A stretch of 64,000 nucleotides of DNA, taken from positions 34,860 to 98,859 of the forward strand of contig NDFF03000041.1 in NCBI GenBank assembly GCA_002150815.3, read 5' to 3'. Origin of the DNA: Grammothele lineata (taxonomy: Eukaryota; Basidiomycota; Agaricomycetes; Polyporales; Polyporaceae). Below the pieces are notes generated by a model. It was not told the DNA's origin. It did no database searches and saw only the letters and a list, made by a program, of their open reading frames with translations. The stretch's first letter is position 1; every line of letters begins with the position of its first letter. A program made the translations under genes and the position numbers. Below are positions 4,497 to 64,000 of the stretch, piece by piece.

Positions 4497-6252
4497 CTAG
4501 TCTAGGAGGTATGTAACCGGCAGGCGAGGTGGCTGCAGGCGCTGTCAGCGAAAAAGAGGTCTGATGAAAAGAGAGACTTACTGTGGCGACATCCTTCAAT
4601 TTATTCTCTTCCATCCATTCACGCGCAAGCTTCTCCCGCTTGATACGCACGCACTCATGATTCTCGACCATCTTGCGACTAATGCAGCCAAAGACTAAAC
4701 GCGCAGATGTTAGTCAAACGCCGTTCCGATCATCGAGGCGCGTTAAGACATACCTTCGAGATCGTGTGGATACTCGCGCTGCAGATACTTCACGCCCCTG
4801 TACGTAGCCGATTCACGCAGTCGTCGCGGAAACCAGAAATCTGCGTATGCCTCTGCCTCCTTGTCGAGAGGAAGATTTGGACGCTTCTTGCCGTGCCGCA
4901 CGATGCCCACCCTGCATGGAAGAAGCCAGCCCTCGCCGTCAACGTCAGCGCCGTCAGTTCTGTACCGAACGGGTACCGGAATCAGGTTGGGGCTGTCGAT
5001 GGGGTACCGTCTTTCGAAATACATAGCCGCGAGATCGAGGGGCCCAACTTCCTCAAGCTCGACGGTTCGGTAGTTGTAAGCCTCGACGCAGAGGCGTCCG
5101 ATGGTGTTCTTGGGGAATACAAACCCCGCTACGTAGATATTGACTTGTACTGCAGGCTGAGCGGGATCTGAGGGTAGACGATGCGCTTTTGGTCCACTAG
5201 ATTGGGGGTTCGGGTAGTGGTTGCTGGCGAGCTGAGCCAGCGTGGTTGGCTTGTTGCTCGGTTTCTGTTTCCGGACATCTTCCTCTGCTTCCCGATCGGC
5301 ATGTTTGGATGGTGGTGCGGAAGACGGTGGACTGTGTACCTGAGGTGAGGCTTCTTCTGCGCCTGTCTGCTGCGTTTCGGATGTCTCTCGGTTCACCTAC
5401 TAAAACGTTTTCATACTCGATCAAAGCCTCGAGCCCGGGTCTGCTCACCTTTTCTGTTGTCATTTGTTCCTTCAATTTCTTCAGCCTCCTGCTCGCAAAC
5501 GCTAGTAGGATGGTGTGTTCGCCCTGAATGCTGATCGATGAAGTGGTTAGCCGTTCCACGGATCAGTTCTAGAGTGGTCACTTACTCAATCTGCAGCCAA
5601 TGTAAGTATACTTATACGAAAATGCGGGGATACGACGTACCAGAAGCTCTGCGCACTTATCTAGTGCGGTAGAAACCTCTTCCAGCTCCTCCAGTAGGTC
5701 TGCAAGTGGACGCTCCTGAATATGAGGGCTAGTGGCAGGGGATCTCAATGAAAACGTTACAGCAGGAGAAACAATTGCGCTCACGAGTCACTGCTTGTTT
5801 GCATGTCGATCTTCCTTTTCTTCCTAGACCTGGCCTCCTGCGGTGCGGGGTCGTCTGGACGAGTAGAAAGGAGAGGAGTAGGGGCGAGTGAGGTCGTGGA
5901 TCGTTGAAGAAGTGCGTCGACTTTTCTTGAGGACGAAGGTGGCCGAGGTACAGCAGAGGAATGTTCTCGTGTAGCAAATTTGCGGGCCATGTCGTGTTGC
6001 TCTACAGGGCAGGCCGACGAAGTGTGTTGAGAGACGGTCGATGCGGCGGGATCGTTGTCAACGGGTGGTCCGGCAGCATACACCACGATATCGCGCGAGC
6101 GTAGGCCTGGCTGCACCGGGTCCTGCCCAGCCGTTGTTGAACTACTCGCGTCATGAGTCAACAGCGGCGAGCAGAGCAACCTATTGGCAACCTAGGCCGG
6201 CTTACGGGATAGTGCAATTTTCCCTAGCGCGTTTCCTTGTTGTGCCGGCCAT
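4497..6252 (-). CDS. TRKRARE/GFVF family protein, copy A (intact)
   Basis: Seven exons can be placed. E1 6206-6252 begins M-A-G-T-T-R-K-R-A-R-E. E2 ends at 5785 with S-R-K-K-R-K-I-D-M-Q, a basic nuclear-localisation-like motif. E3 5641-5715 and E4 5449-5523 are 75 nt each and encode charged helices (E-R-P-L-A-D-L-L-E-E-L). E5 4754-5396 carries a Pro/Ser-rich linker, then the family domain: Y-V-A-G-F-V-F, G-R-L-C-V-E-A-Y, P-I-D-S-P-N-L-I-P-V-P, L-L-P-C-R, W-F-P-R-R-L-R-E-S. E6 4582-4694 is a Lys/Arg-rich helix. E7 4497-4532 is exactly 12 codons (P-P-R-L-P-V-T-Y-L-L-D-stop). No stops interrupt it. The domain is not one I recognise. A nuclear location is inferred from the basic motifs; DNA or protein binding is possible but unproven. 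Confidence 0.75.
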
Positions 6253-7612
6253 GTTCCTGTAGGTGAATAGAGCGGAAAACGGTTGCGAGTGGGGCGGTGA
6301 TATCTGTTGTATGAATATGGATGTCCTGGCGCGGAGGCGGTTCAATTTCAGCGAAATCGAACCTCCAGTACGCCAAAGACCGAACTGATCCGCAGGATAC
6401 AATGGGCTCACCGTGGAGAATGGATGGAGACTTGACGCATATCATATCCTTAAATAGGCGACAATAGATACTGACTAGGTTTGGATGGTCGCTTCAAAGG
6501 AAGAAAACATCTCCCAGACATGCTATAATGGCGCGTCTGGGCAAGGATAGTGCGAAGACTAAGTGGTCAGTAAATCCCGTCTCACTGGGGCAGACCCTTT
6601 GACACACATCCTCGCCCTCGAAGGCCGGGCCCATGGATGTTATTTCGTCGATTTGCGCGTCAGGAGTTCAGGGCGCGTGTGGGCATTACAGACGTGCAAA
6701 TGGCCTTATTCACGGCGAAGGGATACAACAAGGGTATACGAAGCGTGTGTACGCGTATTGGTGACCAAAAGAGAGGACAGGACCTACCACTTCCGCTACA
6801 TATGACTGACAGCTGCCCCAGTTACTTATCCCCGTACGTGTGCAGCCACGACGCGTGGCGGCGACTCTGACACACATTAAGAGCACGAATAAGCAGCAGA
6901 GAAGTGCTACGCACCAATATCCTAACGTCCAATGCCAACACAGCTTCAACCTAGACATGACAATAGAGGTGTCTTGTCTCAGCGTCGCACTGAGGGGATC
7001 CCTGGCTTGCGTGCTTGAGGTTCGCGACGCGGATAGACCCCGGTCATGTTTGCCTTTTAGGTACTGTCGCAAGGCCGCGGCAGGGTGCACGGGTTGACTA
7101 GCGTATGACGGGCCGAAGGGATCAGAGCAAGACGTCCAGCAGCCTGAGATTAGCGGGTGAGCTCGTAAAGTGCTCATAAGCAGACAAAACATGCTCTGGG
7201 CCGCCGAGCAAGACATAATGATACTAGGCCTCGGCGTTCAACACGTGACTTCTTCTCAGTCAGGCCTTTCGAGCCGTCGCCCCATTATTTGGTGAACGAA
7301 GTAATCGACAACGTAAACACCAACGCACCCAGGAGTAGCAGGTTACGGTGGGACACGTGGCGTTTCAGCGCGAACTCTGGGCAGACTGCTAGAAAGGACG
7401 AGGATATGGCCAGCGATGCGTGGCGCTGCAGTACTATTAAACAATCTAACGGAACGTACAAACGTGACAAAGGAATCTAGTAGGTACAGATGGAAAGCAT
7501 GGAACAGGTAACACGAGGGTATTCCCGGGTACTGTCTTTCGTCCAGACGTCAGCTACGACGTCAAACGTGGCGGTCTAAGACACATACCAGAGACAAAGG
7601 AATACGCCGACG
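6253..7612. other. intergenic between copies A and B
   Basis: This stretch holds the upstream region of copy A and the 3' flank of copy B. The part at about 7430-7612 is clearly homologous to 4320-4496 (same order of short blocks up to the conserved last exon), so copies A and B arose by duplication of a unit of about 3.1 kb that includes flanking DNA. The minus-strand frame at 6710-7216 (168 codons) has no recognisable features and is not called. Confidence 0.55.
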
Positions 7613-9129
7613 TTAATCTAGGAGGTAAGTAGTTGGAAGTCGAGGCGGCTGCAAGCTTTGTCAACGGAAAGAAGTTTGGATGTGGGGAGGCAAACGCACC
7701 GTTGCAATATGCTTCAGGCCATTCTCCACCATCCACTTGCGCGCGAGCCCCTCCCGCTCGATACGCACGCTTTCCTGAATCTCGAACATCTTGCGACGGA
7801 TGCAACCAAAAACTGAACGCGTGAATGTGAGTCAAACATCTGCTCGGTCGAGTCGCCGTCTCAGGACGTACCCTCGAGATCGTGCGGATACTCGCGTTCG
7901 AGATACTTCACGCACTTGTATCCGGCCGATTCACGTAATCGTCGCGGAAACCAAAAGTCCGCGTACGCTTCCGCTGCCTTGTCAAAAGGGAGGCTCGGCC
8001 GCTTTCCGCCGTGCCGCACGATGGCTATCCTACATGGAAGAAGCCACCCTCCTCCTTCTATCTCGCCGCCCTCGGTCCTGTATCGGACGGGTACCGAGAT
8101 GAAATCGGGGCTGTCGATGGAACGTCGTTCCTGGAAATACATGGTAGTGAGGTCGAGAGGTCCGACGTTCTTCACATTCGCGGGAAGGTAGTTGTATGCT
8201 TCTACGCATAGGCGTCCGACCGTGTTTCTGGGGAAAACGAATCCCGCTACGTAGATGTTGACCCGCACATCCGCTTGAGTCAGGGCTTGGGAAATAGTGG
8301 GGGGTAAACGGCGCGATTTGGGACCACTGTACGGGGGAGTTGGGTAGGACTTCCGAATCATTTGAGTCGACGTGGTTGGTTTGAGGTTCGACTCGGGTCT
8401 CTGAGTGTCACCGACATCCTTCTCGGTGTCTCGATCGACATGTTCAGACGGCGATGCAGAGGATGTCGGGGTTGGCAGCGAGGGGGAAGCGTCCTTTGTA
8501 TTGGTTCGCTGTGCTTCCATCATTGCACTATTCGTCTGTCGAGGACTCTTGAACACCCCGCGAGAGGTTCATACAAAACTGGCTCACCTTCTCAACCACC
8601 ATATATTCCTTCAACTTCCTCAACCTTGTGCTCGCGAACTCAAGTAGGGTGGCGTGCTCGCCCTTGACGCTAATTGGTTGTATAATTGGTTGTATACTTA
8701 GCTTCTGCGCGCACTAATCCGACAACGGTCACTCACTTATTCTGTTGCAACATTGCAATGATAAGAGTATGCATATACCACGAACTGGGATACAACGTAC
8801 CAGAAGATCGGCGCACTTGTCCAGCACGGTGTAGACCATCTCCAACTCTTCCAACGGGTCTCCAAATGGACGTGTCTGTATATGAGAGCTAGCAAGAAAA
8901 AATGTCCATAAGGTTATGGTATAGAAATGCGCGTAGCACGCTTACAAGTCATCGTTGGTTTGCATGACAGTCCTTCGTCTCTTCCTGGACCGAGTCTCCT
9001 GAGGTGTGGTGGTCATGACCGGCTCTGAAGGGCTGAAGTAGTTATGAGCCTAGGAAGAAACAAGGCTGTTTGGAAGACGTACCCAGCTAGTTCTACATCC
9101 CTAGCACGCTTTCTAGTCATTACAGGCAT
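7613..9129 (-). CDS. TRKRARE/GFVF family protein, copy B (intact)
   Basis: It has the same exon plan as copy A. The start M-P-V-M-T-R-K-R-A-R-D is at 9129. Exon 2 ends S-R-K-R-R-R-T-V-M-Q near 8955. A helical exon lies near 8815-8880, another near 8600-8670, and the large exon at about 7873-8556. That exon encodes a Pro/Ser linker followed by Y-V-A-G-F-V-F-P-R-N-T-V-G-R-L-C, S-I-D-S-P-D-F-I-S-V-P-V, L-L-P-C-R-I-A-I-V and W-F-P-R-R-L-R-E-S. A C-terminal basic helix exon and the 12-codon last exon (P-P-R-L-P-T-T-Y-L-L-D-stop) at 7613-7648 complete it. It is the closest relative of copy A in this window. Function is not known. Confidence 0.72.
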
Positions 9130-9797
9130 GGTGATTGTTGGGGGACAGTCGAAGATGGTGGCCGTAGTCAAAGTGGGTTCGGATTTCCGGATAGGGCGGA
9201 TGGGCGCCTCAGCCTTGGTTGTGAATGACCGGACCGGGCTCCTTGATCGGCGCTCTAGCTGAGTGTAGCACGTGAGCATTTCCAGCGTTCACAATCAGGG
9301 AAGCGCCGGAGGAACTCGGTCAACTCGGCGATACGCACTCAAGTACGTACCCTGCCAGCCGTGTAATTTGCTTCCATTGTAGCCGCAAACATCAAAGGTT
9401 GTATGAGTACTTGAGCTCAGTGAATCTACTAGACGGCTCTATCCCAAGGCGCTTGTTGTGCTGCCGCCGGCACGCCCTCACTGTTATGCTATTCACACTC
9501 GTGCCAATGAGTCCGCCAGCGCTAGGTAATCATCCTTTGTGAACAATCATGCTACTATCGGATTAGAGGTGATCAATACAACACGGTACGAACAACCATT
9601 TGATATGCAGATTTGACGGGGACATGATCATACACAGAGGCATAGTACAACATTACAGTAAAATTGGACTCGGAGGAGATAAGTACATAGCGTGAGGAAT
9701 GGGTGTACTAAACACCGAAAGGAGTACTTGCATCTGTCTCGTGAGTTGTACGATGAGAGCATCCACCATTGTCGCACTCAGATAACATCTCTTCCTT
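9130..9797. other. intergenic, no supported gene
   Basis: The region lies between the start of copy B and the stop of the nuclease-type gene, both on the minus strand. Open frames are short and featureless. It probably contains the promoter of copy B and the 3'UTR of nothing I can identify on the plus strand. Confidence 0.5.
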
Positions 9798-12150
9798 CTA
9801 CGGTGCCTGAAGAACATCCTCGGTATAAGGATACTGAGCTTCTCTCCACTCGCGTTGTGCGATGTCGCGTAGTGTGTTGTGGACGTATAAGCTACTAGCC
9901 GGCCAATAGGGTTCACCTAAGCCGCGTCCCGGGGGCAGGATTGTTACAACCTGATCGTTCTCCTGGGCCCTGTCTCGGTGAGCAAGCATAAACTCAAGAC
10001 CAGGACCATCGCCGTTAACCGACCGGCACCCTAGGCCTAGGACTTCGAGGTTTCCAGAAAAGCCCTCCAAGTACCGGGAAAGTTGGCCAAGTGGATCGTC
10101 CTCGACTTTGTCCTCCACCACAATCAATGGTTCGTCCGGTGCACCATCAATGCCAACCCTGACCACGATGAAATCGGGTATGCCGTGTTTCGCGCGACCC
10201 TTCCCTCTTCCGGGAACCACGCGCCCGAAAGAGTCCTCGGATTCATCGCCGGAAGGGGCCTGAAAGGTGGATACCTCCAGTAGAGATCCCTTGCTTGCAA
10301 CCTCACTGGAATGAAACTTGTGAAAGCTGCTGACGTCCAATGTGTTATCAGGAACGTCGGAATGTGTGTTTGGATGGGTTATTGGAGCTGGGACGGGCGA
10401 TGATCCTCCTAGTCCCTCGGGAGACTTCAAGGGAGGAGGGGAGAGCTTCTCTCTGACCACACGAAGATCGATACCATCCAGCACCTTGTTGCCATTTGAC
10501 TCAGAATTCCCGTCCGTCGCTCTGGAGCTTTCGTGGGCGTCGCGAGATTGACCTTCATCCGCACAGGCCTTGTCGTCGTCTTCGTGCCACACAAGGCTGA
10601 TGTTTGCGTTAAACTCGGGATCAGCGGCGACAGATCTCCCCGGGATAGGTGTCGAGCAGTTAGGTATGTGGGCATGAGTGGGGATGCGGCTGGGTGTCTG
10701 ATTGCTCTCGTCGATCCACGCAGGCTCTGGAATATTGGAGGGAAACTGTCCCGGAGGTGACATAGGCAGTATTTCCGAGTCTTGTGCATCTGTGCTGAGA
10801 GAAGACGTATGGCAGTTGTCGGTGTCGGTAAGGAGACGTGGAGTAGCTGCATGGTTGGGACTGGCATGTTTCTCTCGATCCTTCCAGTGTGCGCATATGT
10901 AGTCCCAGTACGTGACAATGTCTTCTTCCTGAACACGCACTTCGTCTCGGAGACGATATTGGGCCACCACCTTGAACATTCCACGAGGTGGGAAGTACGA
11001 AAGAAGAAGAGTGAGTACCACGGCATCGATTGAGCACTCATAGCGTGGTTTCTTCATCTTAAACAGTTTCGTCCATACAAACAGCGGTACAAGGGACGTC
11101 CTGGCACGCTCATCTTCGGCCTTCTTCTGTTTGTCTTCTTCTTCGAGACGCTTCTCTTCGTGCTTGCCAAGGTCGACTCGCGCAGAATCCAGCTCCTCCC
11201 GAACATTTTGGAGTTCTGCGCGCGCCGAACGGAGGTCCTCCTCAATTTCCTCGCGCCCGCTCTCTGCTTGAGAAAGAGCGTCGACTGCGGCCGTACGCTC
11301 CGCCACCGCTGTCGTCCGTTCTGCCACCGCTTCTTCCAACTCACCCTAATGTCAAGTCAGTTTTAGGCCAATTAAGATCGCACCTAATTCGGAGATCAGT
11401 ACGCACACGCTCAATTGATGCCTTCCTCCTTAACTCCTTCAGCCGATCTCCAACAGACTCTACAATCTCCAAGAAATCCTTCCGAACTCCTCGTATGCTG
11501 ATATTCGTGCAAATTTGTGGTCAGCGGCTGATTGATTAGAAGTAACAATTGTTTTCCAGACACTCACTCGCGCTAGACACATCGGTGGTCAGCATTGACA
11601 TCCGTAAGTACGCGCTGTAAGCTCTGCACTCACCATGAGCCTGACACTCGACTTCAGAGTATCTTCCATTTCCTTCAACTCCTGTGTTGTTTCCCGCAAC
11701 GGTCGCTCCGTGGTGGTCGGGCTACGGAACCGCTGTAGTTCAGGCTCATGTGCTCATCATCGAATTCCAGAGAACTCACAGAGGCTTGATTGATAGGGGT
11801 ATAGGCTTGCGTGCCTTTCGCGCTGGTTCCCTTTGCGACCCCGAGGCACTGAAGGTGGTCAGGACCGCGACCACCCGACCAGAATGGCAAGAGGAGCCAT
11901 CAGCGAGTTTCGAACGAGATGGTAGGTAAATACTCTCTCACCCATCTTGATCTGTGTCTCTCTTGCGTTTCTTGGGTGGCATTGAAAGGTCTTGTGTGGC
12001 GCTAGGTGGGTGGACTGAACAGAGAGTGGTCGGGTCCCTATTGTCGTCGGAGGGGTAATAACATCGCCGTACCGGGCCGAGCACTGTCGCACTGTCTCGA
12101 TCACGTGGTCTAGGTGGTCGGGAGGAAAGCTTTCGAGTTCGAGTTATCAT
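9798..12150 (-). CDS. family N-terminus fused to coiled coil and PD-(D/E)XK nuclease-like domain
   Basis: The start M-I-T-R-T-R-K is followed by P-P-K-K-R-K-R-D-T-D-Q (NLS-like, ends near 11940). Next come E-R-P-L-R-E-T-T-Q-E-L-K-E (11630-11705) and a helix V-E-S-V-G-D-R-L-K-E-L-R-R-K (~11405-11500), matching the first four exons of the GFVF copies. The last exon (from ~11340) differs: a coiled coil rich in Ala-Glu-Arg, a conserved hydrophobic patch near 11020-11080, a long acidic/Ser-rich linker, then G-I-P-D-F near 10184 and I-V-V-E-D-K near 10107, followed by Q-L-S-R-Y-L. The order PD...EDK...QxxxY fits the restriction-endonuclease-like fold with the extra Q-Y motif of RecB-like nucleases. 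Nuclease activity and target are inferred. The frame is open to the TAG at 9798. Confidence 0.68.
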
Positions 12151-13719
12151 CGTGCAATGACATCTCTGATACAATAAAAATGAGATTTTCTGAGAACAGA
12201 AGCTCAGGTATACATGAATGTACCTTGAGGGGCGATCTATCATTCCAGTAAGGATACTGTCTATTCAGCACCGTGACTAAAACTGCTAGCCCCGCACCGT
12301 GGAACAGCTCAATACATTTGCTATGTCACGTCCTTTAGCGTCGGCCTGTGTTCAATCACTCCATCTATGAGAGTGGCAAGCTTTCTGTTTTTTTAACTGT
12401 GGCAATGACTGGTGAGAAAAGGGTCTCGATATCACGTTCCGTGAAGATATCCAGCGTTGCCTCGGGCTGGGGTGAACGCGATAGCGGAGGTCTGCAGACC
12501 GTCATCGTTTATTTCTCAGTTCTACCTCTTTCATCGTTTGCAAGTAATATGACAAGGATGAACGAGTCACAACCATAGGCGTACATTCCGCATACCGCCA
12601 AGGCTGACGAAATACGTGATGCTACCTGACGTTTCGATTAACGCCTTCGGAAGAACAGTCACAGGCTGAGTGGGTTGAGATAGAAATCAATGGGCTTCAG
12701 GAATTCAGGAAATTAATATAGCGACAGTCGAGATGCCGTTCACACTAAGACGTGCCGGTGGAAGGATCTCCAGGTAAGAAGTCAGCATTAAAAGTGTGGA
12801 ACGCGCGACGGAAAGCTCGCGCTAGGAGAAGAAATGTGAGAGAAGCACGAAAATTGGGAATGACGTTGGGAAGAGAGAACATACCATATGTTTGACATGA
12901 TACTAGACCACTCCTCTGCGAGCCACGCCGTCGCGACGCGCATTCACTTTTCGAAGGACGCGTCGGGATATCCCGAAGGATCAGTCTCCTAACTTCCAAG
13001 GAATCCAGGCGACGGAGGGCACACGGTACCGGTTGCGCAGATGAACACTCTACATGTATCGAGCTTTCCTGTACACTCCTGGCACCACAGATGGTGGGGA
13101 TCCATCCACTCCACTAGACGGATCCTTGCCGCCTCATACCTGACGCCCGTAATGTAATGCCCATATATATACCCACGACAATGTCGCGCACGGTAAAGGT
13201 TGCTCTGAAGCCGAATTGCTATGACCAATTTGCTGGCGCCCCAGCCAGAGACGACACGCCTAGAGGGTGCAGCTCACAGGCTGCTGCGTGCGATGCTCCC
13301 AACGAGAGCGCGATGTCGAAGTGAGACACCCCAGCGGTTGTTCCCCATCGATGTCGATAAAGGTGTACCAGAATGGCACGGCGTGCGAGAATGAGCATTG
13401 CGAGTTATCGCATCCTTCACCAAACGCCTAACCTCGAAACCGCTGCGCGTCGTGACACCGACAACTTGACAGAGCACCTGGCACGCCGGCGCATGATGAG
13501 GTATGACGCGCCCGCAACGGTCATCTAAACAGAGGGTCGTAAAGCTCAAGGGAGACTCACACGAGGCGGCACAACTGACATCATCTCTCACAACAACGTC
13601 CTGCACATCCAGGATGCCGTGGAAGAGGATGAGGTCCACACCAGCCTGGTCCGCGACCCGCTCTGCACGGTCCTAACCGTCTACGCTATTGCCCAATGCT
13701 GAACTTAGTTGAGATGGTG
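12151..13719. other. intergenic, no supported gene
   Basis: The region lies upstream of the nuclease-type gene. Two minus-strand frames (12989-13228 and 13274-13639, 80 and 121 codons) could be fragments of an unidentified gene, since both contain several cysteines. They share no recognised motif and no convincing splice link, so I do not call them. Confidence 0.4.
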
Positions 13720-14830
13720 AGCGAGCGGCAACGGCTCCTTACGCCGTGCCGGGAGAATGCTGAGTGCGTTGGTGGGCATATGGCAAACGTTCCTCAGCGT
13801 AGATGTGATTGAAACGGAGAGGCCAGGACGGAAAAGGGGGGATATAGAGGTGGCATCAATGTAAGATGGCGTAAATCGAGACTCACCGGAAAACGCTAAC
13901 ACGGGATAGGATGAGACGAGCGCAGTTGCACTCTGGGAAAGACACGATAGTGAGCGTAGCATCTGTAGATTAAGGCAATGAAAATGACCACGTATCGTGT
14001 CCCGTATCCTAGCCACATCGCTTCTATCCAGCTCCTGAGAGCGGGAAAATATTACCGGAGTAGCTGAACAGCTCGCATGGAAGACGCAAGATGCGGCAAT
14101 AAAAGAGCGAGGGAGACGTTGTGGAGGGCAAAAGCAAGCGAGGGAGAATACCTCCGAGCTGGTGCTTTGAGGTCGGGTCAACACTTCACTTTGAACCTCC
14201 GCAAGCGAGGAATTTGCCGTTGAGGATGTCTTGGTACGGCATGCCAGGCAATGAGGGGGCGTAGACGTTGCGACCTTGGGGCGGTCGAAGGGAGAGCCCA
14301 GCAGGTACGATGGATCGCGGAGCCATACACACGGAGCAGCGTCCGTCGAGCGAGGAGTATTGAGCTCGGGTGAGGTCTCAAGATCTCAGCTGAGTAAAAG
14401 ACAGAGGCGAGTGCATGGAAAAAAGGTGGGAAGGGACGGCGTTGCGCCCCGGCCACGCGAGCCTACGCCCAGGGGCGCTTGGGCGCTTGATGATCGGTAA
14501 TGCATCAATCCGAAGTACATCTGAGCGTTGCGGCATTTGGAGACGCTAGCTCCTCGTTCGGTGATTATCTCGCAAGCCGCATGCTCGTTTCCACACGTCG
14601 CATGACTCAGATCTTAGCTCTGAAGCCCAACACTCCCGTCTTTCGGGTAACGGGTAAGTATTCAACTGCCCGTACCACTGCGAGCCTCAGTGAGCTTGAA
14701 TGCGACGACGGAGATCTGCCAGTGGCCGGCCCAAATCCTCGTGCTCGACCTTCCCGGATAGAGACTGGATTGTCCAGCAAACCGACTAATAGTACAAAGA
14801 ATCCAACATGAAGTCATTGGCAAGGGGGGA
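13720..14830. repeat. duplicated intergenic block, unit 1 (partner 16590-17540)
   Basis: This block aligns collinearly with 16590-17540. Shared landmarks include AAGATGGCGT, TCGAGACTCACC, GAAAACGC, CATCTGTAGATT, ACGTATCGTGTC, GAGAGACGTTG-like runs and the closing GGGCGCTT. It lies directly downstream of copy D just as the partner lies downstream of copy E. Minus-strand frames in the two units are partly conserved and a GTGAGTCTCGA donor-like site is present in both, so it may be a decayed spliced gene. The reading frames are broken in at least one copy and no product is recognisable. Confidence 0.7.
14770..14810 (-). promoter_or_regulatory. conserved 3'-flank element of family copy D
   Basis: The stretch around CCGACTAATAGTACAAAGAA matches the elements downstream of copies E, F and J (ACTAA or ACTGATAGTACA followed by A-T-C-C-A-A-C-A). 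It is about 130-170 bp beyond the stop codon, inside duplicated block 1. It is probably transcribed as 3'UTR. Its role is unknown. Confidence 0.45.
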
Positions 14831-14941
14831 TTTAAATCTGACATTATGACGATGCGGCGGAACGCTGTTAATGTATGAGATCAGAGAGTGCAGAGCATAT
14901 AACAGAAAGCTCTTACCATGGCACATATACAGAAGATGGAA

Positions 14942-16416
14942 CTAGTCAAAGAGGTACAGCGTAGGTAGTGGAGGGGGCTACGGAGATGATATCAGGACAC
15001 AAGATTGATCACGATGTACTCGGAGAACGCACCATAATTTGGACATTATTCTGTTTCATCCATTCCCGAGCGAATTGCTCACGTTTGGCAAGCACTGATG
15101 GGTAACACTCCCTCATTTTACGAAGAACGCACCCCGTGGCTGGCATCCACGCGTAAGCCAAGGAACGCAAGGAAAATGAGTAGAAGATTCTTACGATATT
15201 CATCGCGGGGATATTCCCACTGGATATACCGCACTTTCCTAAATGCGCTCGACTCTCGCAGACTGCGAGGGAACCACCGATCGGCATATGCTTCGGCATG
15301 CTTGTCGAAAGGAAGGTCGGGCTGCTTTCCACCAGCGCTCACGATTGCCAATCTACACGGGAGCAACCAGGCGGCATTTTCATCGTCTGGCTCGGGTTTG
15401 TAGCTCCCGGGAATCTTGATGAGGGTCGGACTGTCGATGGCCCGACATCTTTCGAAGTATAGGCAAGCGGCGTCAATCGATGACAGCCCACGGAGCTCGC
15501 TTTGGGGGAGGTGGTAGCCCTCGAGGCAAAGACGGCCGACCATGCTCCTTGTGAAGACAAAGCCAGCAACATAAGCGTCAGCAGTTAGCTCGCAATCTCG
15601 CGGGACACGGGTGGGAGGGGTAGGTCGATAACTCGGGTTCGGTGAGGGGTCTGGGACAGGTGAAGGTGATTTCTCAGCAGCTTGTACCGGTAACGCGTCT
15701 TGACTTTGAATGACGGACGGGTCGGGTGCTTTCGAGGATGGTCCGGGAGCGGGAGATGTTGGTGGCTGTTGAGCTGTTGACTGCTGTTCCGTGTACAAAT
15801 GGATGGGTGTAAGTCATAAGCACCCTTTTGACACGAGAAGTAACATGTCGCCCACCTGCTCCTGCTCAAGCATAAATGCGTCCCTAACCTCCTTCAGCCG
15901 TGAACTCGCAGCTTCAAACACGTCGGAATATCCACCCTCAAGCCTAGCAGAAAGAAGCACTAAATGACACCGAAGCATGACGTGGGTGGTCAAGGCACTT
16001 ACTCCCGCTGCGGAAAGAGTCAGACAGCAGAAAACGCAATATTTGAGATGGAAAACATACCATAAGATCTGCACAAGCGTGCAAGCCTTCATAGACATTC
16101 TGCAGTTCCTTCCATGGGTCTCCAAGGGGTTCGCCGTGGTTGAACGAGGGGCTACACAAAGGTATGCTGAGTATACGGCCTACTTCGCTAAAGTAGAGAA
16201 TCACTCACAGAGAGGCTGTAGATTTTACGTTTACCTTCTGCTTCTTCCTCGAACGAGGGTTTCGCGCTCGGGTGGTTGTGGTGGCTGCTGCCTTGGGCGG
16301 CGCGGGGCTGTCACCAGGGTTATCTGGCATAAGCAGACTAAGAGAGAATGAGATTGCAAATGAGCTTACGCTAGGTTTTCGGCTTCACGAGCGCGCTTCC
16401 TCGTTGTCACCGGCAT
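14942..16416 (-). CDS. TRKRARE/GFVF family protein, copy D (intact)
   Basis: Exon 1 begins M-P-V-T-T-R-K-R-A-R-E-A-E at 16416 and ends at a GTAAGC donor. Exon 2 ends with S-R-K-K-Q-K-V (near 16225). Exon 3 reads G-E-P-L-G-D-P-W-K-E-L-Q-N-V-Y-E. Exon 4 (~15850-15945) reads L-E-G-G-Y-S-D-V-F-E-A-A-S-S-R-L-K-E. Exon 5 (~15205-15798) has a Gln/Pro/Ser linker, then V-A-G-F-V-F-T-R-S-M-V-G-R-L-C-L-E, A-I-D-S-P-T-L-I-K-I-P, L-L-P-C-R-L-A-I-V and W-F-P-R-S-L-R-E-S. A basic helical exon 6 and the 36-nt exon 7 (14942-14977, P-P-P-L-P-T-L-Y-L-F-D-stop) follow. All frames are open. Function is unknown; a nuclear location is inferred from the basic motifs. Confidence 0.75.
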
Positions 16417-16589
16417 TCTGTGTGAGGGATGCAAGAATGAATCGAAGACGCTTCCAAGTCGACAAAGTTTCAAGTTGAACTGAGTCGGCGTTTAACACCG
16501 TTGTTCGGGATTCAAACTCCGCTATGGCTCAGCGTCCTAATCTTATCTGTCTTCTTAAAGGAGGCGCTTATTCTCGGGCGTCGCACTCA

Positions 16590-17540
16590 GCCGCGTTGCA
16601 GCGGCAAACGTACATAACTCAGCGTAAACGTGTTTACAACGGGAGAGACCGGGATGGAAAGAAGAGGATAGGCATGTAGCCTCAACGTAAGATGGCGTTG
16701 ATCGAGACTCACCAGAAAACGCCAACATGGAATAGGATGAGACGAGGGCAGCTGCACTCTAAAAAGATAGGATAACTTGAATGGGCGCACGGCATCTGTA
16801 GATTGATGCGATGGAGACGACTACGTATCGTGTCTCGTTTCCTAGCTATATCATGTCTATCCATGTCCGGAGCGCGGAAAACTACTACCAGAGTAGCTGA
16901 GTAGCTTACATGGAATGCGGACAGTAGAGGAGCGAGAGAGACGTTGCGGAGGGCAAAAGTGACTCAACGAGGGAGGATACCATCGAGCTGGTGCTTCGAG
17001 CTCGGTTCGACACTTTACTTCGAGCATCCGCGAGCGAACAACTTATTATTGAAGGCGTGGTGGTATATCTTGGTATGATATGCTGAGCAATGGGCGAACG
17101 CAGAGGTAGTTGCCTTGAGGCCACCGAAAGGAAGAGCCCAATAGGTACGATAGATCGTGGAGCGATCCACGCCAATCAGTGTGCATCGAACGATGAGTGG
17201 TGGACCCAGGCGAAGTCTCGTTATCTCAAGAGTAGAAGACAGGTGAGTACGTGGAAAAAGGTTAGAAGGGACAGGACGTGTGCCGTGCATGTGCGGCAGC
17301 GTGAGCGATTGGGCGCTTAAGCATCAGTAAATCTACCCGGCCGTTCTGCACAAGTTCTGCACGTGAGCGAGCCTTCGTGAATGCCTGAATGCGACGAACG
17401 TGGAGATCTGGCCGGAGACCCGCTGTCTCGATCTTCGTGAAGAAATGACCACATATTAACTAGATTGTCCAGCAAACAGACTAAGAAGACAGAGAATCCA
17501 ACATAGCGCTATTAAACAACTGGGATAGATCCAATATTGC
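16590..17540. repeat. duplicated intergenic block, unit 2 (partner 13720-14830)
   Basis: This is the diverged second copy of the block downstream of copy D, here immediately downstream of copy E. Together with the following gene it makes a tandem unit of about 2.7-2.9 kb. Many substitutions and small indels separate the two blocks, so the duplication is not recent. It includes a counterpart of the conserved 3' element near 17465-17505. Confidence 0.7.
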
Positions 17541-17645
17541 GAAGATGCAACGAGAGGCTGCCAGCCTTTAATGCACAAACTTGTTAAAAAGAGTGTAGGG
17601 CGTATCATGGAGCTCTTACCATGACACATACGACAGAAGACAACG

Positions 17646-19646
17646 CTAGTCAAAAACGTAGAGTGTAGGTAGTGGAGGAGGCTTCAAAGACAATGTTAGG
17701 AAATGTGATGAATCGTAGTGCGAACAACACACCATGTGTTTGGTGCCATTCTGAATCAGCCATTTCTGGGCCTGCCGCTCACGCTCGGCACGTACTGCTG
17801 GGCGGTACTCCCTCATTTTCCGAAGAACGCACCCCGTTGCTGGAACACCCAAATATGAGCCAAGAGGAATAGGGAAGCTTAGTAGAAAACTTATGCTCAC
17901 CATCCCCATCGCGAGGATACTCGCATTGTACATACCGCACCCTTCTGAATGCGTCCGATTCTCTCAGGCAGCGGGGGAACCACACATCAGCATAAGCCTG
18001 AGCGTCCCTGTTAAAAGGTAAGTCGGGCGGCTTTCCACCAGCATTGACGAACGCGATTCTGCACGGAAGCAGATAGGCGATGTGGTAGAGCCGTAGGCTC
18101 TACTCGCGCTCGCGACCAAGTGCGAAGCGCCCAACACCGCCACTGCCGCATGTATACCGTCCGCCGTGCTCGTCCCGCTACTATAGTTCTACCTAGCGCT
18201 CCTTAGATCTACGTTTCCTTGTTTCTATTTACTTACGCTCGTTTACTTATTAGTTCAGCCACTGTCACGGCACGTTACTATATTCCGACTACACGCGACT
18301 GCGTCTCGCGCGTCACGTCTCAGCCTCCGTGAAGTACTATACAGTTCCTACTATAGAGTTCATCCCGATCCGGACTGAGAAGGGCGCGCCCGCCGTCCGA
18401 CGTGTAGACAGATTAGGCAATCCCGTTGTATTCAGCACGCTACGCTACTACATCCGACTACTAGACATCGAATCCACCCTCTCATCAGCTGTCTACCTGC
18501 CTCGCACTCGACTCAGCGTTCGACACGCGCCCGAGAATTCTGTCTACGGAAGATACGAGTCAAAACTCTCTTCTACGACAGCGACTTCGTCGACATCCGG
18601 TGCATCTGTATGAGATATTGGGATGGGTATGAGGGTAGGACAGTCGATAGGGCTACATCTTTCAAAGAACAGAGTAGCCATGTCGATCGGTCCATAAGTA
18701 TCGAGTTCACTTTGGGGACGTTCGTAGCCCTCTATGCAAAGACGGCCTACCAAGCACCTTGTAAGGACGAATCCAGCTATGAAGGCGTCGACGTCACGAG
18801 ATCTCCTAGAGGGAGGAGGTCGTGCGAAAATGTCGAGAGGGGAAGGAGGGGTAGGCTGAGTAATGGAAGGAGGTGGAGGCACAGTCGGATTTTCGACAGC
18901 TTGTCCTGAAAGCTCGTTATAATTCCGAGTGGCGGGCGGATTCTGTGCTTCCGAAATTGGCGCTACAGAAGAGAGTGGGCCTGGTAGGCCCTGATTTTGC
19001 ATTGGCGACTCAGGCTGCTCGTGTACGAAGGCATATGTGTAGTTCATTAGAACCATTAAATACACCTGAAGGCCAAGTTATTCACCTTCTCAAGAAGGAG
19101 AGCGCTCCTGATCTCTTTCAGCCGCAAGCTCGCTGATTCGATCGCATCAGCGTATCCGCCCTCCAAGCTAGTCATGGGGAAAGAAGTGCTTAACGAGACC
19201 GAGGCACAACGCGGGTGGTCAACATACTTACTGTCGCTGAGGGAAGGGTCAGACAGCAGAGACGCAGTACTTGATATGAGAACATGCCATGAGATTCGCA
19301 CAATCCTGCAACGCTTCATAAACGTTTTGTAGTTCGTTCAGTGGCTCTCCTAGGGGACGAGCCTTGAACGAGGGGCTACACGAAGACACGATAAGTCTAC
19401 TATATCCCATGCGATAGAACAAATTTGCTCACAGAGCAACCGAGGATTCCATGTTGACCTTCCTCTTCTTCCTTGAGCGAGGGTCTCGCGCTCGAGTGGT
19501 ACTAGTGGCCGGCGCCGTTATCTTCTCGGAGGGCACGACGCTGCGAGACACGTCTCCGATTGAAGATTCAGAGAAGACAATGGAAGATTACAAGCTTACC
19601 TTGTTCTGTCAGCTTCTCGAGCCCGTTTCCTCGTTGTAACCGGCAT
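17646..19646 (-). pseudogene. TRKRARE/GFVF family copy E, split by a 500-bp LTR-like insertion
   Basis: Exon 1 (M-P-V-T-T-R-K-R-A-R-E-A-D from 19646), exon 2 (R-A-R-D-P-R-S-R-K-K-R-K-V near 19460-19500), the two helical exons (about 19300-19350 and 19080-19165), the linker and GFVF part of exon 5, exon 6 and the 12-codon exon 7 (P-P-P-L-P-T-L-Y-V-F-D-stop) are all present and open. The single visible lesion is the insertion at 18081-18580 inside exon 5, between D-V-D-E-V-A and Y-L-L-P-C-R. The frame on the two sides is otherwise collinear with paralogues. In the interrupted state translation stops shortly after the junction. The gene was apparently functional until the insertion. Confidence 0.78.
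18081..18580. mobile_element. solo-LTR-like insertion (500 bp) in family copy E
   Basis: The element begins TGTGGTAGAG and ends CTACGACA, so it has TG...CA ends and a short inverted repeat (TGTnGTAGA at both ends). It is flanked by the 4-bp direct repeat GCGA (18077-18080 and 18581-18584). Near the left end GTAGAGCC and GGCTCTAC can form a hairpin. There is no transposase or gag-pol coding sequence. These marks fit a solitary long terminal repeat left by recombination. A non-autonomous DNA element (MITE) is the alternative. Boundaries are supported independently by the interrupted, otherwise collinear coding exon. Confidence 0.75.
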
Positions 19647-19714
19647 TCTGTGCGAGGGGCTCAAGGGGTCGGAGGTGCAAGGTGAACCCAGCGTTCAACA
19701 TGATCGTTCAGTCA

Positions 19715-19722
19715 GTATATAA
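19715..19722 (-). promoter_or_regulatory. candidate TATA box of family copy E
   Basis: The minus strand reads TTTATATAC about 70 bp upstream of the copy E start codon. It is embedded in a segment (GCGGAGTTT preceded by a GCTCAG-like motif) that is also recognisable upstream of copy D near 16525-16545, where the TATA core is replaced by TGAATC. The position is plausible for a core promoter; no further evidence is available. Confidence 0.4.
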
Positions 19723-19797
19723 ACTCCGCTGAGCTCCTGAGCGCCATTGAATCTTAGCGCGCATGTTGAAGTCTATTTGTTGACACTCCGCAGAATA

Positions 19798-20395
19798 CGC
19801 GTGAATCATTCATTCTCGAGCCACTTGCTCACGTTCGACGCGCACTTCTGTGCGGTAAGCCCTCATTTTCCGGAAATCGCATCGCATCGCTGGCACGCCA
19901 GGCGCGATCAAGTCACCCTCAAAAGAAGTAAGTCCACTAGCTACAAATCACTGTCCTCTAGTACGCGGGGGTATTGGCGCCGTTTGCCATACTACATTCT
20001 CCTGAACGCAGAACTGAAGTTGCGTACACGGCGTGGAGACCACTGATTAGTAGGTGTTTCCGCATCCTTGTTCAAGGGCGGGCTGGGCGACTGCTGACCA
20101 GCGCTTAGAAGCACTACTGCACGGCTCCAGTAGCTGGCAGGAGACGTCAACTTGACAGCAGTCGGTGTGTGCTCGTAATGTGCTCGAACGAGTATAAGCA
20201 CAGACCTATCGCAAGAGTAACATCTTTCAAAGTGCATGATGGCGAGTCCGACCTACCTAGCCCGTCCGAGCTTGCTTTACTAGACGCAGTGGTAGCTCTC
20301 GAAGCAAAGATGCACGGCGGTGTTTGCTATGTGAACAAAGGCTTCAACATAGGGCCGCGTCAACGGGTATTCCGGGTCGTGGAGGAATAGGTCCT
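19798..20395 (-). pseudogene. decayed fragment of the GFVF family (relic G)
   Basis: Only the C-terminal half of a family gene is recognisable. An exon 5 relic has A-F-V-H-I-A-N-T, L-C-F-E-S-Y-H-C-V followed by stops, then M-H-F-E-R-C-Y-S-C-D and N-K-D-A-E-T-P-T-N-Q-W-S-P-R-R (about 20010-20340). An exon 6 relic (F-R-K-M-R-A-Y-R-T-E-V-R-V-E-R-E-Q-V-A-R-E-stop) lies at about 19810-19900. Front exons are missing. It sits between copy E and copy F and is a clear dead member. Confidence 0.7.
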
Positions 20396-20703
20396 GCACA
20401 AAGGAGTATTGGGGAAGAAGGAATCATTGGATGAGTAGGCCAGCGTGGAGTCAAGAGCCTGAACCATATACAATCAACTCATCGACAACTCCGTTCGATG
20501 GTCGCTCGTTCTAGGGACAACGAGTGATTGAGCAGTGAGACAACTAATGGTACAAAAGTCCAACAAAGCAGTATTGACACAAGAGATGGCTGAGATGCTA
20601 TGATTCTGAGATGCGGCGGAAAGCTGTTTGTATATTAACAGTCAACAGTCACATTCAAGGGCACAGGGAAACACGCTTACACGACACGTAAGACGAGATA
20701 AAA

Positions 20704-22193
20704 CTAGTCGACTAGGTAGACGGTTGGAAGTCGAGGTGGCTAAATACAACATGAATACGAAGAATATGAGCTAACCCAAGACACGCACCATTATTGCAAC
20801 ATTATTCTGTACCATCCGTCTGCGTGCGGACTGCTCGCGCCCGACACGAACTTTTTTGGGGTACTCGCTCATCTTCCTGAGAACACAATCGAAGACTGAA
20901 CGTTCGGACGTGAGTCAAGCGTCTTGCGCGGAAGCATCTGGTACTGACCATTCTGATCGCTTGGATACTTGCATTGAATATACTGCGTCCTCCTAAATGC
21001 TTCCGACTCCCGAAGAAGACGTGGGAACCACTCTTCCGCATACGCCTCTGCGTCCTTATCGAAGGGTCAATCGGGCTGCTTCTGGTCACTGGTGACGGTT
21101 GCTACCTTGCATGGAAGGACCTAGGTTACACTGTCGATATCTGGTTCGTGTTTGTAATGCACTGGAATCGGTATGAGGTTGGGGCTGTCGATAGGCCGAC
21201 GACCTTCGAAGTGCATGGCAGCGAGGTCGATCGGTCCACATTCGTCGAGGTCGCGTTGGGTGAAGTTGTAGGCGTCTAAACAGAGGCGTGCAACTACGCT
21301 TCTAGTGAAAACGAACCCAGCGATGTAAACCCGAGCTGGCATTCCTATGGGTTTAGGTATGGGATGCATGACAATGTCGTCAACTGCGGGTCGTCCGCTA
21401 CGCGGATTGCTAGGACACGGCGGGGGAGCGACATTGTGTGGACAATTTGACTTGGCGCCGTAGGTCTTGAGACGTTCGAAGAGCGGGCATGTTCGTGGTT
21501 CTGAGCGACAGGAGTATCGACCACCTGAGACGATGGAGCTGAGGAAGGGAGTGCTAGGAGGAGGTGAGCCGCTAGCGAGTTGTCCGTGGGCGACACGTTC
21601 TTCCATATAACAAGTTGTCAGTATGTTTACCAGAAGGAGGAGAGAAACTTACCAGTTTATGCCAGAGCACCCCACGGACCTTTCCTAGACGCAAGCTTGC
21701 TGATTCAATTGTGTCCGCGTGTCGCCTCTCCAAAGTGGAGAAACGGAACGGTCAGAGTTGCGGGTATAATAGTCCGGTGGCCAGAGTACTCACTTACGCT
21801 GTCAACGCAATCAGTTGGTGGGAACAGCGAGCATCAACTATTGACGTACAAGGTGGTTCGCACAATCCCGCAAGACTTCATAAATGGCCTTGAGCTCCTC
21901 CAACGGATCGCCGACGGGCCGATTTCTGAAGCAGCGGCTAGCGGCACACATTATGGTCTAAGAGACAACGATGGACACAGAATGTGCTCACATATTATCT
22001 ACAGATTGCATGTTTACCCTCCTCTTCTTCCTGGTTTGAGAAGCTTGTGTTCTACTCGTTGTGGCTACCGCGGCGAGAGGGTCCTGTGCGGGACTACAAT
22101 AGTCAACGTGAGATCAGGACCCGGAGAACGTGCTATCTGGGCTTACGGTGCATTTTCCGCGACCCGAGCGCATTTTCTGGTAATCACTGACAT
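20704..22193 (-). pseudogene. TRKRARE/GFVF family copy F with two in-frame stops
   Basis: The exon plan is complete. The start is M-S-V-I-T-R-K-C-A-R-V-A-E at 22193. Exon 2 ends T-R-K-K-R-R-V-N-M-Q. Exon 3 contains R-P-V-G-D-P-L-E-E-L-K. Exon 5 has Y-I-A-G-F-V-F-T-R-S-V-V-A-R-L-C and P-I-D-S-P-N-L-I-P-I-P. The last exon is P-P-R-L-P-T-V-Y-L-V-D-stop at 20704-20739. In exon 5 a TAG replaces the invariant Trp codon before the L-P-C-K motif (near 21121), and a TGA follows Q-P-D (near 21065). The sequence beyond both stops still matches the family. Two nonsense changes make this a recent pseudogene unless there is assembly error. Confidence 0.75.
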
Positions 22194-22399
22194 TTTGTCT
22201 GTGAGCGAAGAGATGAAGGAAGATGAAGGTGGCGGTGAAGGTCAAGGACGTGATTCGAACCATGATTCGGTCCGATCGCGAGTCGGCGCTTCTCGCGGAC
22301 CGCGAAAGGCGCACGTGCCCGGAACCTCAAGCTCAAGTGAAGGTGTATTGCCTACCATAGGGCTCGGCCCTCAAGGGCAATAAACGAGGATACCAAAAA

Positions 22400-22950
22400 A
22401 AAAGTGAAGGTGTACGGTACGTGGCAGCAGATCCCTCCAGTGAGCATGTCTCAGTTTTCTCCTTGAAGCTTGGCCTACTATCCCGAACTGGTGGGATATA
22501 GTTTTTAGGACAAGCACGGCGACGTGAAGTGGTCAGGACACTCACTTCCGCTGCGAACATGATCAGATGTTTAGACACACGTATAAAGCATGAGTAAAAC
22601 ATACCAGAATTTTACACATTCGCGCAACGTTTCATACACTACCTGCAACTCTTTCACCGAATCTCCAAGGGGACGGTTCATCATGCTGGGGTGAGCGGCC
22701 CTTATGAGACCTTGGCGTTGCGAGTTCTACAATTTGACGATGAATGAAACTCACATTGGCCTCACGCTCCCAGTATCTAACTTCCTCTTCTTTCTAGACT
22801 TAGTGTCTCGTGTCCGAGCGGCTGTACTTCTCGCGGCCAAAGGCCCGAAGCTACAACAACTGTACATTAGCGAAAATCAAACGCAGGTGAAGAAGCTTAC
22901 AGTGTGCCTTCTGCTTCGCGAGCACGCTTGCGGGTGCCAATGACCGCCAT
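22400..22950 (-). pseudogene. truncated family N-terminus (relic I)
   Basis: The front exons are well preserved. Exon 1 starts M-A-V-I-G-T-R-K-R-A-R-E-A at 22950. Exon 2 contains R-T-R-D-T-K-S-R-K-K-R-K-L-D near 22790-22840. Exon 3 reads R-P-L-G-D-S-V-K-E-L-Q-V-V-Y-E near 22610-22680. Beyond a weak exon 4-like trace near 22440 no large exon follows. Instead an A-rich tract occurs at about 22396-22405 and then the upstream region of copy F begins. It appears to be a copy whose C-terminal half was deleted. Confidence 0.65.
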
Positions 22951-63159: not shown

Positions 63160-64000
63160 TATGTGAGGGTGAAGAGGGGAGTAAAATTCAAGGACGATGG
63201 TTGTGTGCGAGGTGAAAGAGTGGTCAGGCGGCTTCGCGGTCGATTCGAACCCGCTGGGCGCTTCGCCTGTTTCGGAGATCGGCGACTTCCGAATCTCCTT
63301 CCGGGCCCTCGGCCCGGGCTTCAACTTGCTTCAACTTGAAGCTTGAGTGAGAGTTGAACGGTTCTTTTGTGACAGAATGCTTAGGCGTGTTGTATCCCGT
63401 CTTCCGGATCCTCATTGCGAGCGAAGCGAGCATTTTCAGTGCCTAGGGGGCGAACGCGGAGCACTTCCCCCGGACAAACACAACCAAACATGCACTACAA
63501 CTGGGCATTTGGCGCCGAGGACCGAGTGAAGGCACCAAGTGCTCTCCATACGCACGAAACACCACGAAAACGCATATGCATGCTATCTAATGCTGTTTCA
63601 GTACGCATGGAAAGTTTGAAGAGGCTAGGTGCCCTCCTTCGTACTGGAGGGCAACATTGCATTAGGCGCCTATCCTCACGGTGGTCAAGACGGGGAGCAT
63701 AATCCCAGTTGTAAAGTACCGCAGGTCCGCAACAACAACTTTAGAGGAACGGTATGACCAATTCCAGTTAGAGGCGCATACCAAGAAGTCTTACCTCATC
63801 TTTGAGTAGGGTCTCTATGGAAGAGCCTGAGTGTTGAGTGGTCAACGTTTCTGAACAGCGAAGTGGCACTGTGGCAGCCTGCGGCTTACTAGCTCACTGA
63901 AAGCAGGTACGAAGTTCTCTTCTAGTACTGCCCACAGAAGTGTGCACGCCGTCACGTACTCGGACTGCGAAGCGAGCTATTCGTGCTGACGATGGCTAGT
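63160..64000. other. upstream flank of copy J, no supported gene
   Basis: A GGTTCGAATC motif on the minus strand near 63242-63251 also occurs upstream of copy F (near 22250), both less than 100 bp before the start codon, so it may be part of a shared promoter. A dyad CGGGCCCTCGGCCCG lies near 63301. No gene is recognisable to the window end. Confidence 0.4.

What the first reader, a model, noticed from the sequence alone, without database searches (positions are those of the whole stretch)
4497..22950. Gene family with a constant nuclear-targeting front and exchangeable C-terminal modules
Seen: copies A, B, D, E, F, J and relic I share exon 1 (TRKRARE), exon 2 (S-R-K-K-R-K basic motif) and two short helical exons (75 nt each in copy A). 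The gene at 9798-12150 has recognisably the same front (T-R-T-R-K, P-P-K-K-R-K-R, E-R-P-L-x-E-x-x-x-E-L, R-L-K-E-L-R) but a different C-terminal part. Inference: the front is a delivery/oligomerisation unit and the back is the variable effector, as in other modular effector families, joined here by exon shuffling at intron boundaries. I know no described family with this exact layout.
Basis: partly seen in the sequence, partly recalled or inferred. Interest (0 to 1): 0.8.

Follow-up and report, generated by a model that had tools for sequence, protein, structure and literature searches.

The report
Fungal genes sharing front, different backs
A cluster of related, probably fungal genes shares one front half, recognisable by a predicted five-letter exon, but carries one of two different back halves, one of which looks like a DNA-cutting enzyme.

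Summary
Copies A, B, D, J and the gene at 9798-12150 (here C) share a front of basic, NLS-like exons and two short helical exons. The two fronts are homologous by profile comparison (hhalign 96.6%, E 6.7e-10). The helical exons are 88 and 82 nt in A, not 75, and a predicted 5-nt microexon lies between them. It is present in all 15 copies whose exon 3 I recognised, of both gene types. Two further C-type genes elsewhere carry the same front, so C's front is unlikely to be a separate gene. Two backs were found: a ~130-residue alpha/beta module without known relative (20 loci) and a long back with a PD-(D/E)XK-like signature (3 loci). Four alpha/beta modules show no front, as joining of modules at a phase-0 intron predicts. 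Best reading: nuclear proteins that pair through a shared helical front, one type probably a nuclease; the function is inferred. No relative was found, but the collections searched may hold few fungi, and no RNA data were available.

The parts
6206..6252 (-). Copy A exon 1 (MAGTTRKRARE, basic)
5785..6144 (-). Copy A exon 2 (long, ends in SRKKRK basic patch; its start is one of several possible acceptors)
5641..5728 (-). Copy A exon 3, helical by appearance, 88 nt
5586..5590 (-). Copy A 5-nt microexon ATTGA (predicted)
5449..5530 (-). Copy A exon 4, helical by appearance, 82 nt
4754..5396 (-). Copy A exon 5: linker and A-type alpha/beta module
4582..4694 (-). Copy A exon 6: basic tail
7700..9129 (-). 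Copy B, A-type gene, open throughout: exons 9129-9083, 9032-8946, 8888-8801, microexon 8741-8737, 8669-8588, 8547-7872, 7812-7700
11942..12150 (-). Gene C exon 1 (equivalent to exons 1+2; TRTRK and PPKKRKR)
11634..11721 (-). Gene C exon 3, 88 nt
11568..11572 (-). Gene C 5-nt microexon CGCGA (predicted), same letters in all 3 C-type genes found
11407..11497 (-). Gene C exon 4 (RLKELR), 91 nt
9798..11345 (-). Gene C last exon: coiled-coil-like start, small middle domain, low-complexity linker, PD-(D/E)XK-like domain (about 9798-10295)
15195..16416 (-). Copy D, A-type gene: exons 16416-16370, 16337-16209, 16151-16061, microexon 16007-16003, 15943-15856, 15783-15195; exon 6 follows downstream
17730..19646 (-). 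Copy E, A-type, module split by an insertion between about 18580 and 18081; microexon CGACA at 19236
20790..22193 (-). Copy F, A-type, degenerate (stop codons in the module); microexon CGTAA at 21798
22546..22950 (-). Relic I: front only (exons 1-3 and microexon CGGAA at 22550-22546), no back module seen
61945..63159 (-). Copy J, A-type gene: exons 63159-63113, 63072-62962, 62906-62819, microexon 62766-62762, 62704-62623, exon 5 from 62550; exon 6 follows downstream
19956..20378 (-). Relic A-type module with 4 stop codons

Best explanation
This is one nuclear protein family with two sub-types. A shared front (two basic patches likely to act as nuclear-localisation signals, then two helices whose coding parts are joined through a 5-nt microexon) is spliced at a phase-0 intron onto either an alpha/beta module (A-type) or a coiled-coil plus PD-(D/E)XK-like nuclease back (C-type). 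Each join seems to have happened once, before tandem duplication built the present array. Likely mechanism (inferred): the front takes the proteins to the nucleus and lets members pair with themselves or each other; the C-type back binds and cuts nucleic acid; the A-type back gives regulation or specificity. The microexon must be included for a full protein, since skipping it shifts the frame and removes the back. Step by step: shared descent of the fronts about 0.95; microexon real about 0.9; one joining event per back about 0.7; nuclease fold in C-type about 0.75; active nuclease about 0.5; nuclear location about 0.7; pairing through the front about 0.5; A-type acting as partner or regulator of C-type about 0.2.
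For: Identical intron phases and similar exon lengths in A, B, D, J and C over exon 3, microexon and exon 4. The 5-nt exon with AG and GT borders is in 15 of 15 copies whose exon 3 was recognised, including 3 of 3 C-type genes; 13 of these 15 also came up in exon-3 searches that did not use the microexon. hhalign E 6.7e-10 with shuffle control. The genome search gave three C-type backs, all with the front. Four A-type modules have no exon 3 within 2.5 kb upstream: best scores 5-16, downstream controls 11-20, positive controls 97 and 117. On the module tree these four fall on one side of a branch with support 89/94. D..E-x-K is invariant in 3 of 3 C-type backs, and QxxxY is present in 2 of 3, QxxxH in the third. 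dN/dS of the A-type module is 0.07-0.25 in 5 pairs. Skipping the microexon truncates 5 of 5 models before the back.
Against: No transcript supports any splice site here. C39:27633 has an exon 1 of the family, but no exon 3 or microexon was recognised in it. The nuclease fold is not confirmed: no Pfam match; in the PDB by sequence HincII comes second and third at E 0.92 and 1.2, behind an unrelated isocitrate dehydrogenase at 0.37; the single-sequence model has pLDDT 40 and no useful fold match. The A-type fold is a medium-confidence model without a significant match. NLS and pairing are read from the sequence, not measured. C231:742 groups with D but shows no front, in only about 740 nt of upstream sequence, so a front may be lost; counted as front-less it makes two changes on the tree, not one. 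The exon-4 frame of C54:350158 is unclear.
Confidence: 0.6

Rival explanations
1. The two backs are ancient divergent forms of one ancestral back rather than two unrelated modules joined to one front; no shuffling took place.
For: The introns from exon 2/3 to exon 4/5 are shared, and both types sit in the same arrays.
Against: The genome search with the C-type last exon returned no A-type module at E up to 10 (6 matches), and the search with B's last exon returned no C-type gene at E up to 10 (22 matches); only the best candidates are scored in these searches. C-type backs have a coiled-coil-like start, a middle domain and a D..E-x-K signature not seen in the A-type. A-type modules exist without a recognisable front. 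The two backs were not compared by profile or solved fold.
Confidence: 0.08
2. The front near 11407-12150 is a separate small gene or relic that happens to lie before an unrelated nuclease-like gene.
For: A front-only relic exists (I), and the coordinates alone would allow it.
Against: Both other C-type genes (C39:33522-34966 and C54:354392-356029) have the same front, the same CGCGA microexon and the same order; frame and phase join cleanly in C.
Confidence: 0.03
3. Modular host-targeting effector family like Crinklers: front for delivery into another organism, backs as toxins.
For: A nuclear, modular layout with a nuclease-like back resembles the described Crinkler plan (PMC5289972, passages).
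Against: The Pfam scan gave no family for A, and only below-cut-off hits to coil families, DUF4407 and an adenovirus family for B and C; no NTPase or kinase family. No LFLAK and no G-x4-GK(S/T) pattern in 5 of 5 models, and no hydrophobic start. The A-type back is under strong purifying selection.
Confidence: 0.07
4. Selfish toxin and antidote genes: the C-type nuclease kills cells or spores lacking the locus, and linked A-type members with the same front neutralise it.
For: Spok killers pair an N-terminal coiled coil with a PD-(D/E)XK domain bearing QxxxY (PMC6660238, passages). All 3 C-type genes found lie within a few kb of a fronted A-type gene.
Against: Adjacency is expected from tandem duplication alone. 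No kinase domain as in Spok was found, there are no polymorphism or cross data, and the activity is untested.
Confidence: 0.12

Closest known systems
PD-(D/E)XK nuclease superfamily (C-type back only)
   Same: Invariant D..E-x-K in 3 of 3 paralogs, followed by QxxxY in 2 of 3; weak HincII match, E 0.92, ranked below an unrelated hit.
   Different: No Pfam model matches; fold not confirmed.
SPOK spore-killer proteins of Podospora (PMC6660238, passages read)
   Same: Reported layout of N-terminal coiled coil, unstructured stretches and PD-(D/E)XK domain with QxxxY, similar to C-type.
   Different: No kinase domain found here; a shared front with a second sub-type and a microexon are not mentioned in the passages read; drive untested.
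Crinkler (CRN) proteins (PMC5289972, passages read)
   Same: Modular: N-terminal header with various C-terminal parts, some REase nucleases, reported in nuclei.
   Different: No LFLAK and no G-x4-GK(S/T) pattern in 5 of 5 models, no NTPase family hit; the front here is basic patches plus helices.
Microexons in fungi: P450 genes of Phanerochaete (PMC1184071, passages) and Xlr2 of Trichoderma (PMC11121469, passages)
   Same: Very short internal exons in fungal genes; the shortest reported in the Phanerochaete P450 set is 6 bp.
   Different: Here 5 nt, not a multiple of three, and kept in both sub-types of a family; predicted only.

Membership tests
PD-(D/E)XK nucleases (C-type back) | D and E-x-K catalytic residues in order | tested here: met
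   IPD..(I/V)VExK invariant in 3 of 3 paralogs
PD-(D/E)XK nucleases (C-type back) | alpha-beta-beta-beta-alpha-beta core fold | tested here: inconclusive
   single-sequence model pLDDT 40.3, strand-strand-helix-strand order seen but unreliable; Foldseek no match at E 0.001
PD-(D/E)XK nucleases (C-type back) | nuclease activity | not testable with these tools
   needs protein
SPOK spore killers | PD-(D/E)XK domain with QxxxY | tested here: inconclusive
   D..E-x-K 3 of 3, QxxxY 2 of 3 and QxxxH 1 of 3; fold not confirmed; no direct comparison with a SPOK sequence was made
SPOK spore killers | C-terminal kinase domain | tested here: not met
   Pfam scan of the full C protein at E up to 10: no kinase family; the protein ends with the nuclease-like domain
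SPOK spore killers | meiotic drive | not testable with these tools
   needs crosses
Crinklers (CRN) | LFLAK motif in the N-terminal header | tested here: not met
   absent from 5 of 5 models; the passages read say that some CRN headers lack it
Crinklers (CRN) | ubiquitin-like fold of the header | tested here: inconclusive
   no such Pfam match in A, B or C; the front was not modelled
Crinklers (CRN) | NTPase or kinase with REase in the C-terminal part | tested here: not met
   no NTPase or kinase family in A, B or C, no G-x4-GK(S/T) in 5 of 5 models; REase-like signature in C-type only
Basidiomycete homeodomain mating-type locus | homeodomain gene at the locus | tested here: not met
   PF05920 matches on C11, C38 and C50, none on C39; pheromone-receptor genes were not searched
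Exon-shuffled two-module family | same-phase intron at the junction | tested here: met
   phase 0 at exon 4/5 in A, B, D and C and in J by the corrected model; splice sites predicted
Exon-shuffled two-module family | a module that also occurs alone | tested here: met
   4 A-type modules without recognisable exon 3 upstream; no stand-alone C-type back among 3

The most novel reading that the evidence does not exclude
A two-component nuclear system encoded by linked sister genes: a nuclease (C-type) and a partner (A-type) that recognise each other through a common helical front, with a frame-shifting 5-nt microexon acting as an on/off switch that makes either full proteins or front-only peptides able to block pairing.
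Probability: 0.1. Interest if true: 0.85.

Novelty: new variant of a known kind. Interest (0 to 1): 0.5.

Why it matters
It is a clean case in which intron phases plus a predicted 5-nt exon show that two kinds of gene with different back halves share a front by descent. No Pfam family matches it above cut-off, and so short an exon is easily missed by gene prediction (inference), so relatives elsewhere may be mis-annotated. If the nuclease reading holds, a fungus keeps an array of nuclear proteins of a DNA-cutting and a non-cutting type with a common pairing part, which bears on fungal self-recognition and genetic conflict.

Tried and rejected

Other fronts with a third back: exon-3 searches with J (8 hits), C-type C54 (3 hits) and C39:29962 (3 hits) sequences and one exon-4 search with J (4 hits) returned only places that I assign to the family. 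Reach is limited: single short sequences miss distant copies (one search missed A, C and the C-type and C39:29962 groups). The C-type microexon pattern hit 8 places, the 3 C-type genes and 5 others (the reversed control pattern hit 2); the 5 others show no front. A window pattern meant to catch the microexon and its donor with a fixed tail was badly designed and gave 0 matches. Mating-type locus by homeobox: rejected. The duplicated segment 13782-14437/16603-17272 shows no long conserved open frame and was set aside. One early C model ended exon 4 two bases short and read out of frame; corrected. J's exon 5 start was provisional and corrected.

Literature (open-access PMC only): searches showed no title or abstract start describing this layout; PMC6660238, PMC5289972, PMC1184071 and PMC11121469 were read as passages, the rest as listings only.

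Rows dropped: one search labelled C231:742 and C39:27633 as fronted; later checks found no front in the first and only exon 1 in the second, so repeats the tree with 14 rows, dropping C39:27633 and testing C231 both ways (1 change if left uncounted, 2 if counted as front-less). Three relic loci (C39:36431, C39:54815, C212:4319) and the broken E and F were left out of both trees, and the three relics of the front test. The front profile used 7 of 11 fronted A-type copies, the spacing test 10 of 15, the front/back identity table 5 copies.
Full report
What is there. The window is G000:C39:34860-98859 of an unnamed 41.8-Mb, 252-contig genome. Short introns and gene style fit a basidiomycete, but I did not identify the organism. 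All copies named in the finding lie on the minus strand. I built spliced models for A, B, C (the gene at 9798-12150), D and J; all five are open, C to its stop codon. A, B, D and J share this plan: exon 1 of 47 nt (TRKRAR(E/D)), exon 2 ending in a second basic patch (SRK(K/R)(R/Q)(K/R)), exon 3 of 88-91 nt, a 5-nt microexon, exon 4 of 82-88 nt, then the long exon 5 with the A-type module. A and B have a modelled sixth exon; in D and J it was seen by eye. Intron phases are 2, 2, 0, 2, 0. C has exons 1 and 2 in one open exon of 209 nt, then exon 3 of 88 nt, the 5-nt microexon, exon 4 of 91 nt and the last exon, with phases 2, 0, 2, 0. Weak points: D's first intron is 32 nt, C's first is 220 nt, and A's exon 2 start is a choice among acceptors.

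The microexon. Between exon 3 and exon 4 every copy whose exon 3 I recognised has AG, five bases, then GT: 15 of 15 (14 listed plus relic I). Fourteen have a pyrimidine before AG and 13 have the donor GTRAGT, the other two GTACGT. Copies were first found with a scan that uses the microexon, but 13 of the 15 also came up in exon-3 searches that do not. C39:27633, with exon 1 only, gave neither exon 3 nor microexon. The five bases keep the frame in A, B, C, D and J. In 10 of 10 intron regions tested the spacing of five occurs once (one copy also has a spacing of 15); dinucleotide shuffles of each region give five in 1 to 19 of 1000. Leaving the microexon out gives a shifted frame and an early stop in 5 of 5 models, before the back module. 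The three C-type genes have the same five bases, CGCGA.

Are the fronts homologous? Yes. A scan for exon 3, intron, five bases, intron, exon 4 with A, B, D and J as references scores C at 42.8; the best of 145 candidates in window 23001-61000 on both strands is -10.0. Profile comparison of 7 A-type with 3 C-type fronts gives probability 96.6 and E 6.7e-10; a repeat scored 49.6 against a maximum of 17.4 in 300 column shuffles, and each C-type front alone scored 32.6-39.1. The other two C-type genes, C39:33522-34966 and C54:354392-356029, carry the same front in the same order, so the front of C is very probably part of that gene.

How constant is the front, and how exchangeable the backs? Among 10 pairs of A, B, D, J and C39:1387, identity over exons 3-4 is 21-69% and over the A-type module 47-74%; the module is more alike in 9 of 10, the exception being D-J. 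Exons 1-2 were not compared. The genome search with A's module gave 21 matches at E up to 0.001, at 20 loci since E counts twice. Eleven have the front with the microexon (one, C212:45009, seems interrupted in exon 3), C39:27633 shows exon 1 only, five show none (C96:232411, C212:38288, C212:19604, C54:282152 and C231:742, the last with only about 740 nt of sequence upstream), and three relics were not tested for fronts. The four clearly stand-alone modules fall on one side of a branch with support 89/94. C231:742 groups with D and looks like a copy that lost its front; counted as front-less it makes two changes on the tree. The search with C's last exon gave three C-type loci (plus one weak hit, C45, E 0.35), all three with fronts. 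Relic I has no back. Searches with front exons found no third back, within their limited reach. The simplest history is one joining of the front to the A-type module and one change of back at the phase-0 intron, then tandem duplication. Which back came first is not settled.

The backs. The A-type module is about 130 residues. It has no match in Pfam or PDB by sequence. A model from 7 window sequences (pLDDT 73.5) is alpha/beta with no significant fold match. dN/dS is 0.07-0.25 in five pairs (dS 0.93-1.53, so near saturation); the one C-type pair was saturated in dS. The C-type back starts with a coiled-coil-like stretch (Pfam coil families below cut-off, best E 0.05), then a middle domain of about 80 residues (37-45% identity to C), a low-complexity linker and a C-terminal domain (47-48% identity to C). 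That domain has IPD..(I/V)VExK in 3 of 3 and QxxxY in 2 of 3. These are marks of PD-(D/E)XK nucleases (motif recalled; QxxxY as in PMC6660238); the fold itself is not confirmed.

Mechanism. Shown by sequence: shared front, two backs, junction at a phase-0 intron in the models, conserved microexon signal, purifying selection on the A-type module. Inferred: nuclear entry from the basic patches, pairing through the helices, nucleic-acid cutting by C-type, modulation by A-type, and obligatory or regulated use of the microexon. I found nothing that points to delivery into another organism; the first 40 residues of 5 of 5 models have no strongly hydrophobic stretch.

Neighbourhood. The three C-type genes lie within a few kb of a fronted A-type gene. 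The right end of C39 is identical over 506 nt to the right end of C54 in reverse, so J, the C54 C-type gene and C54:350158 probably form one array. Adjacency is expected from tandem duplication and is weak evidence for joint function. The homeobox search gave no match on C39.

Known relatives. The C-type layout recalls SPOK killers, reported to have an N-terminal coiled coil and a PD-(D/E)XK domain with QxxxY (PMC6660238, passages), but no kinase domain was found here. Crinklers (PMC5289972, passages) are modular in the same spirit; no LFLAK or NTPase pattern was found here. Tiny exons are known in fungi (PMC1184071 and PMC11121469, passages); a 5-nt exon kept across a two-module family was not seen in my searches. 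I therefore rate it a new variant of a known kind.

Noticed in passing
window 63495-64000 (C39:98354-98859): Identical over 506 nt, in reverse, to the right end of contig C54: the two contigs probably join here, which would link J with the C54 C-type and A-type genes.
   Followed up: partly
window 13782-14437 and 16603-17272: Duplicated segment, 73% identical, downstream of D and E; the genome search returned only these two places, and no long conserved open frame was seen.
   Followed up: partly
window about 18081-18579: Insertion splitting the A-type module of copy E; origin not determined.
   Followed up: no
L024/L050, C212:43058-44703: Exon 3 of this copy seems to be in two halves about 1.5 kb apart, suggesting another insertion.
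   Followed up: no
L018, C54:350158 copy: Exon 4 has a stop in the expected frame; either a pseudogene or another acceptor is used.
   Followed up: no
copy E, window about 19290: Exon 3 ends before GC rather than GT, a possible GC-AG intron or a decayed donor.
   Followed up: no
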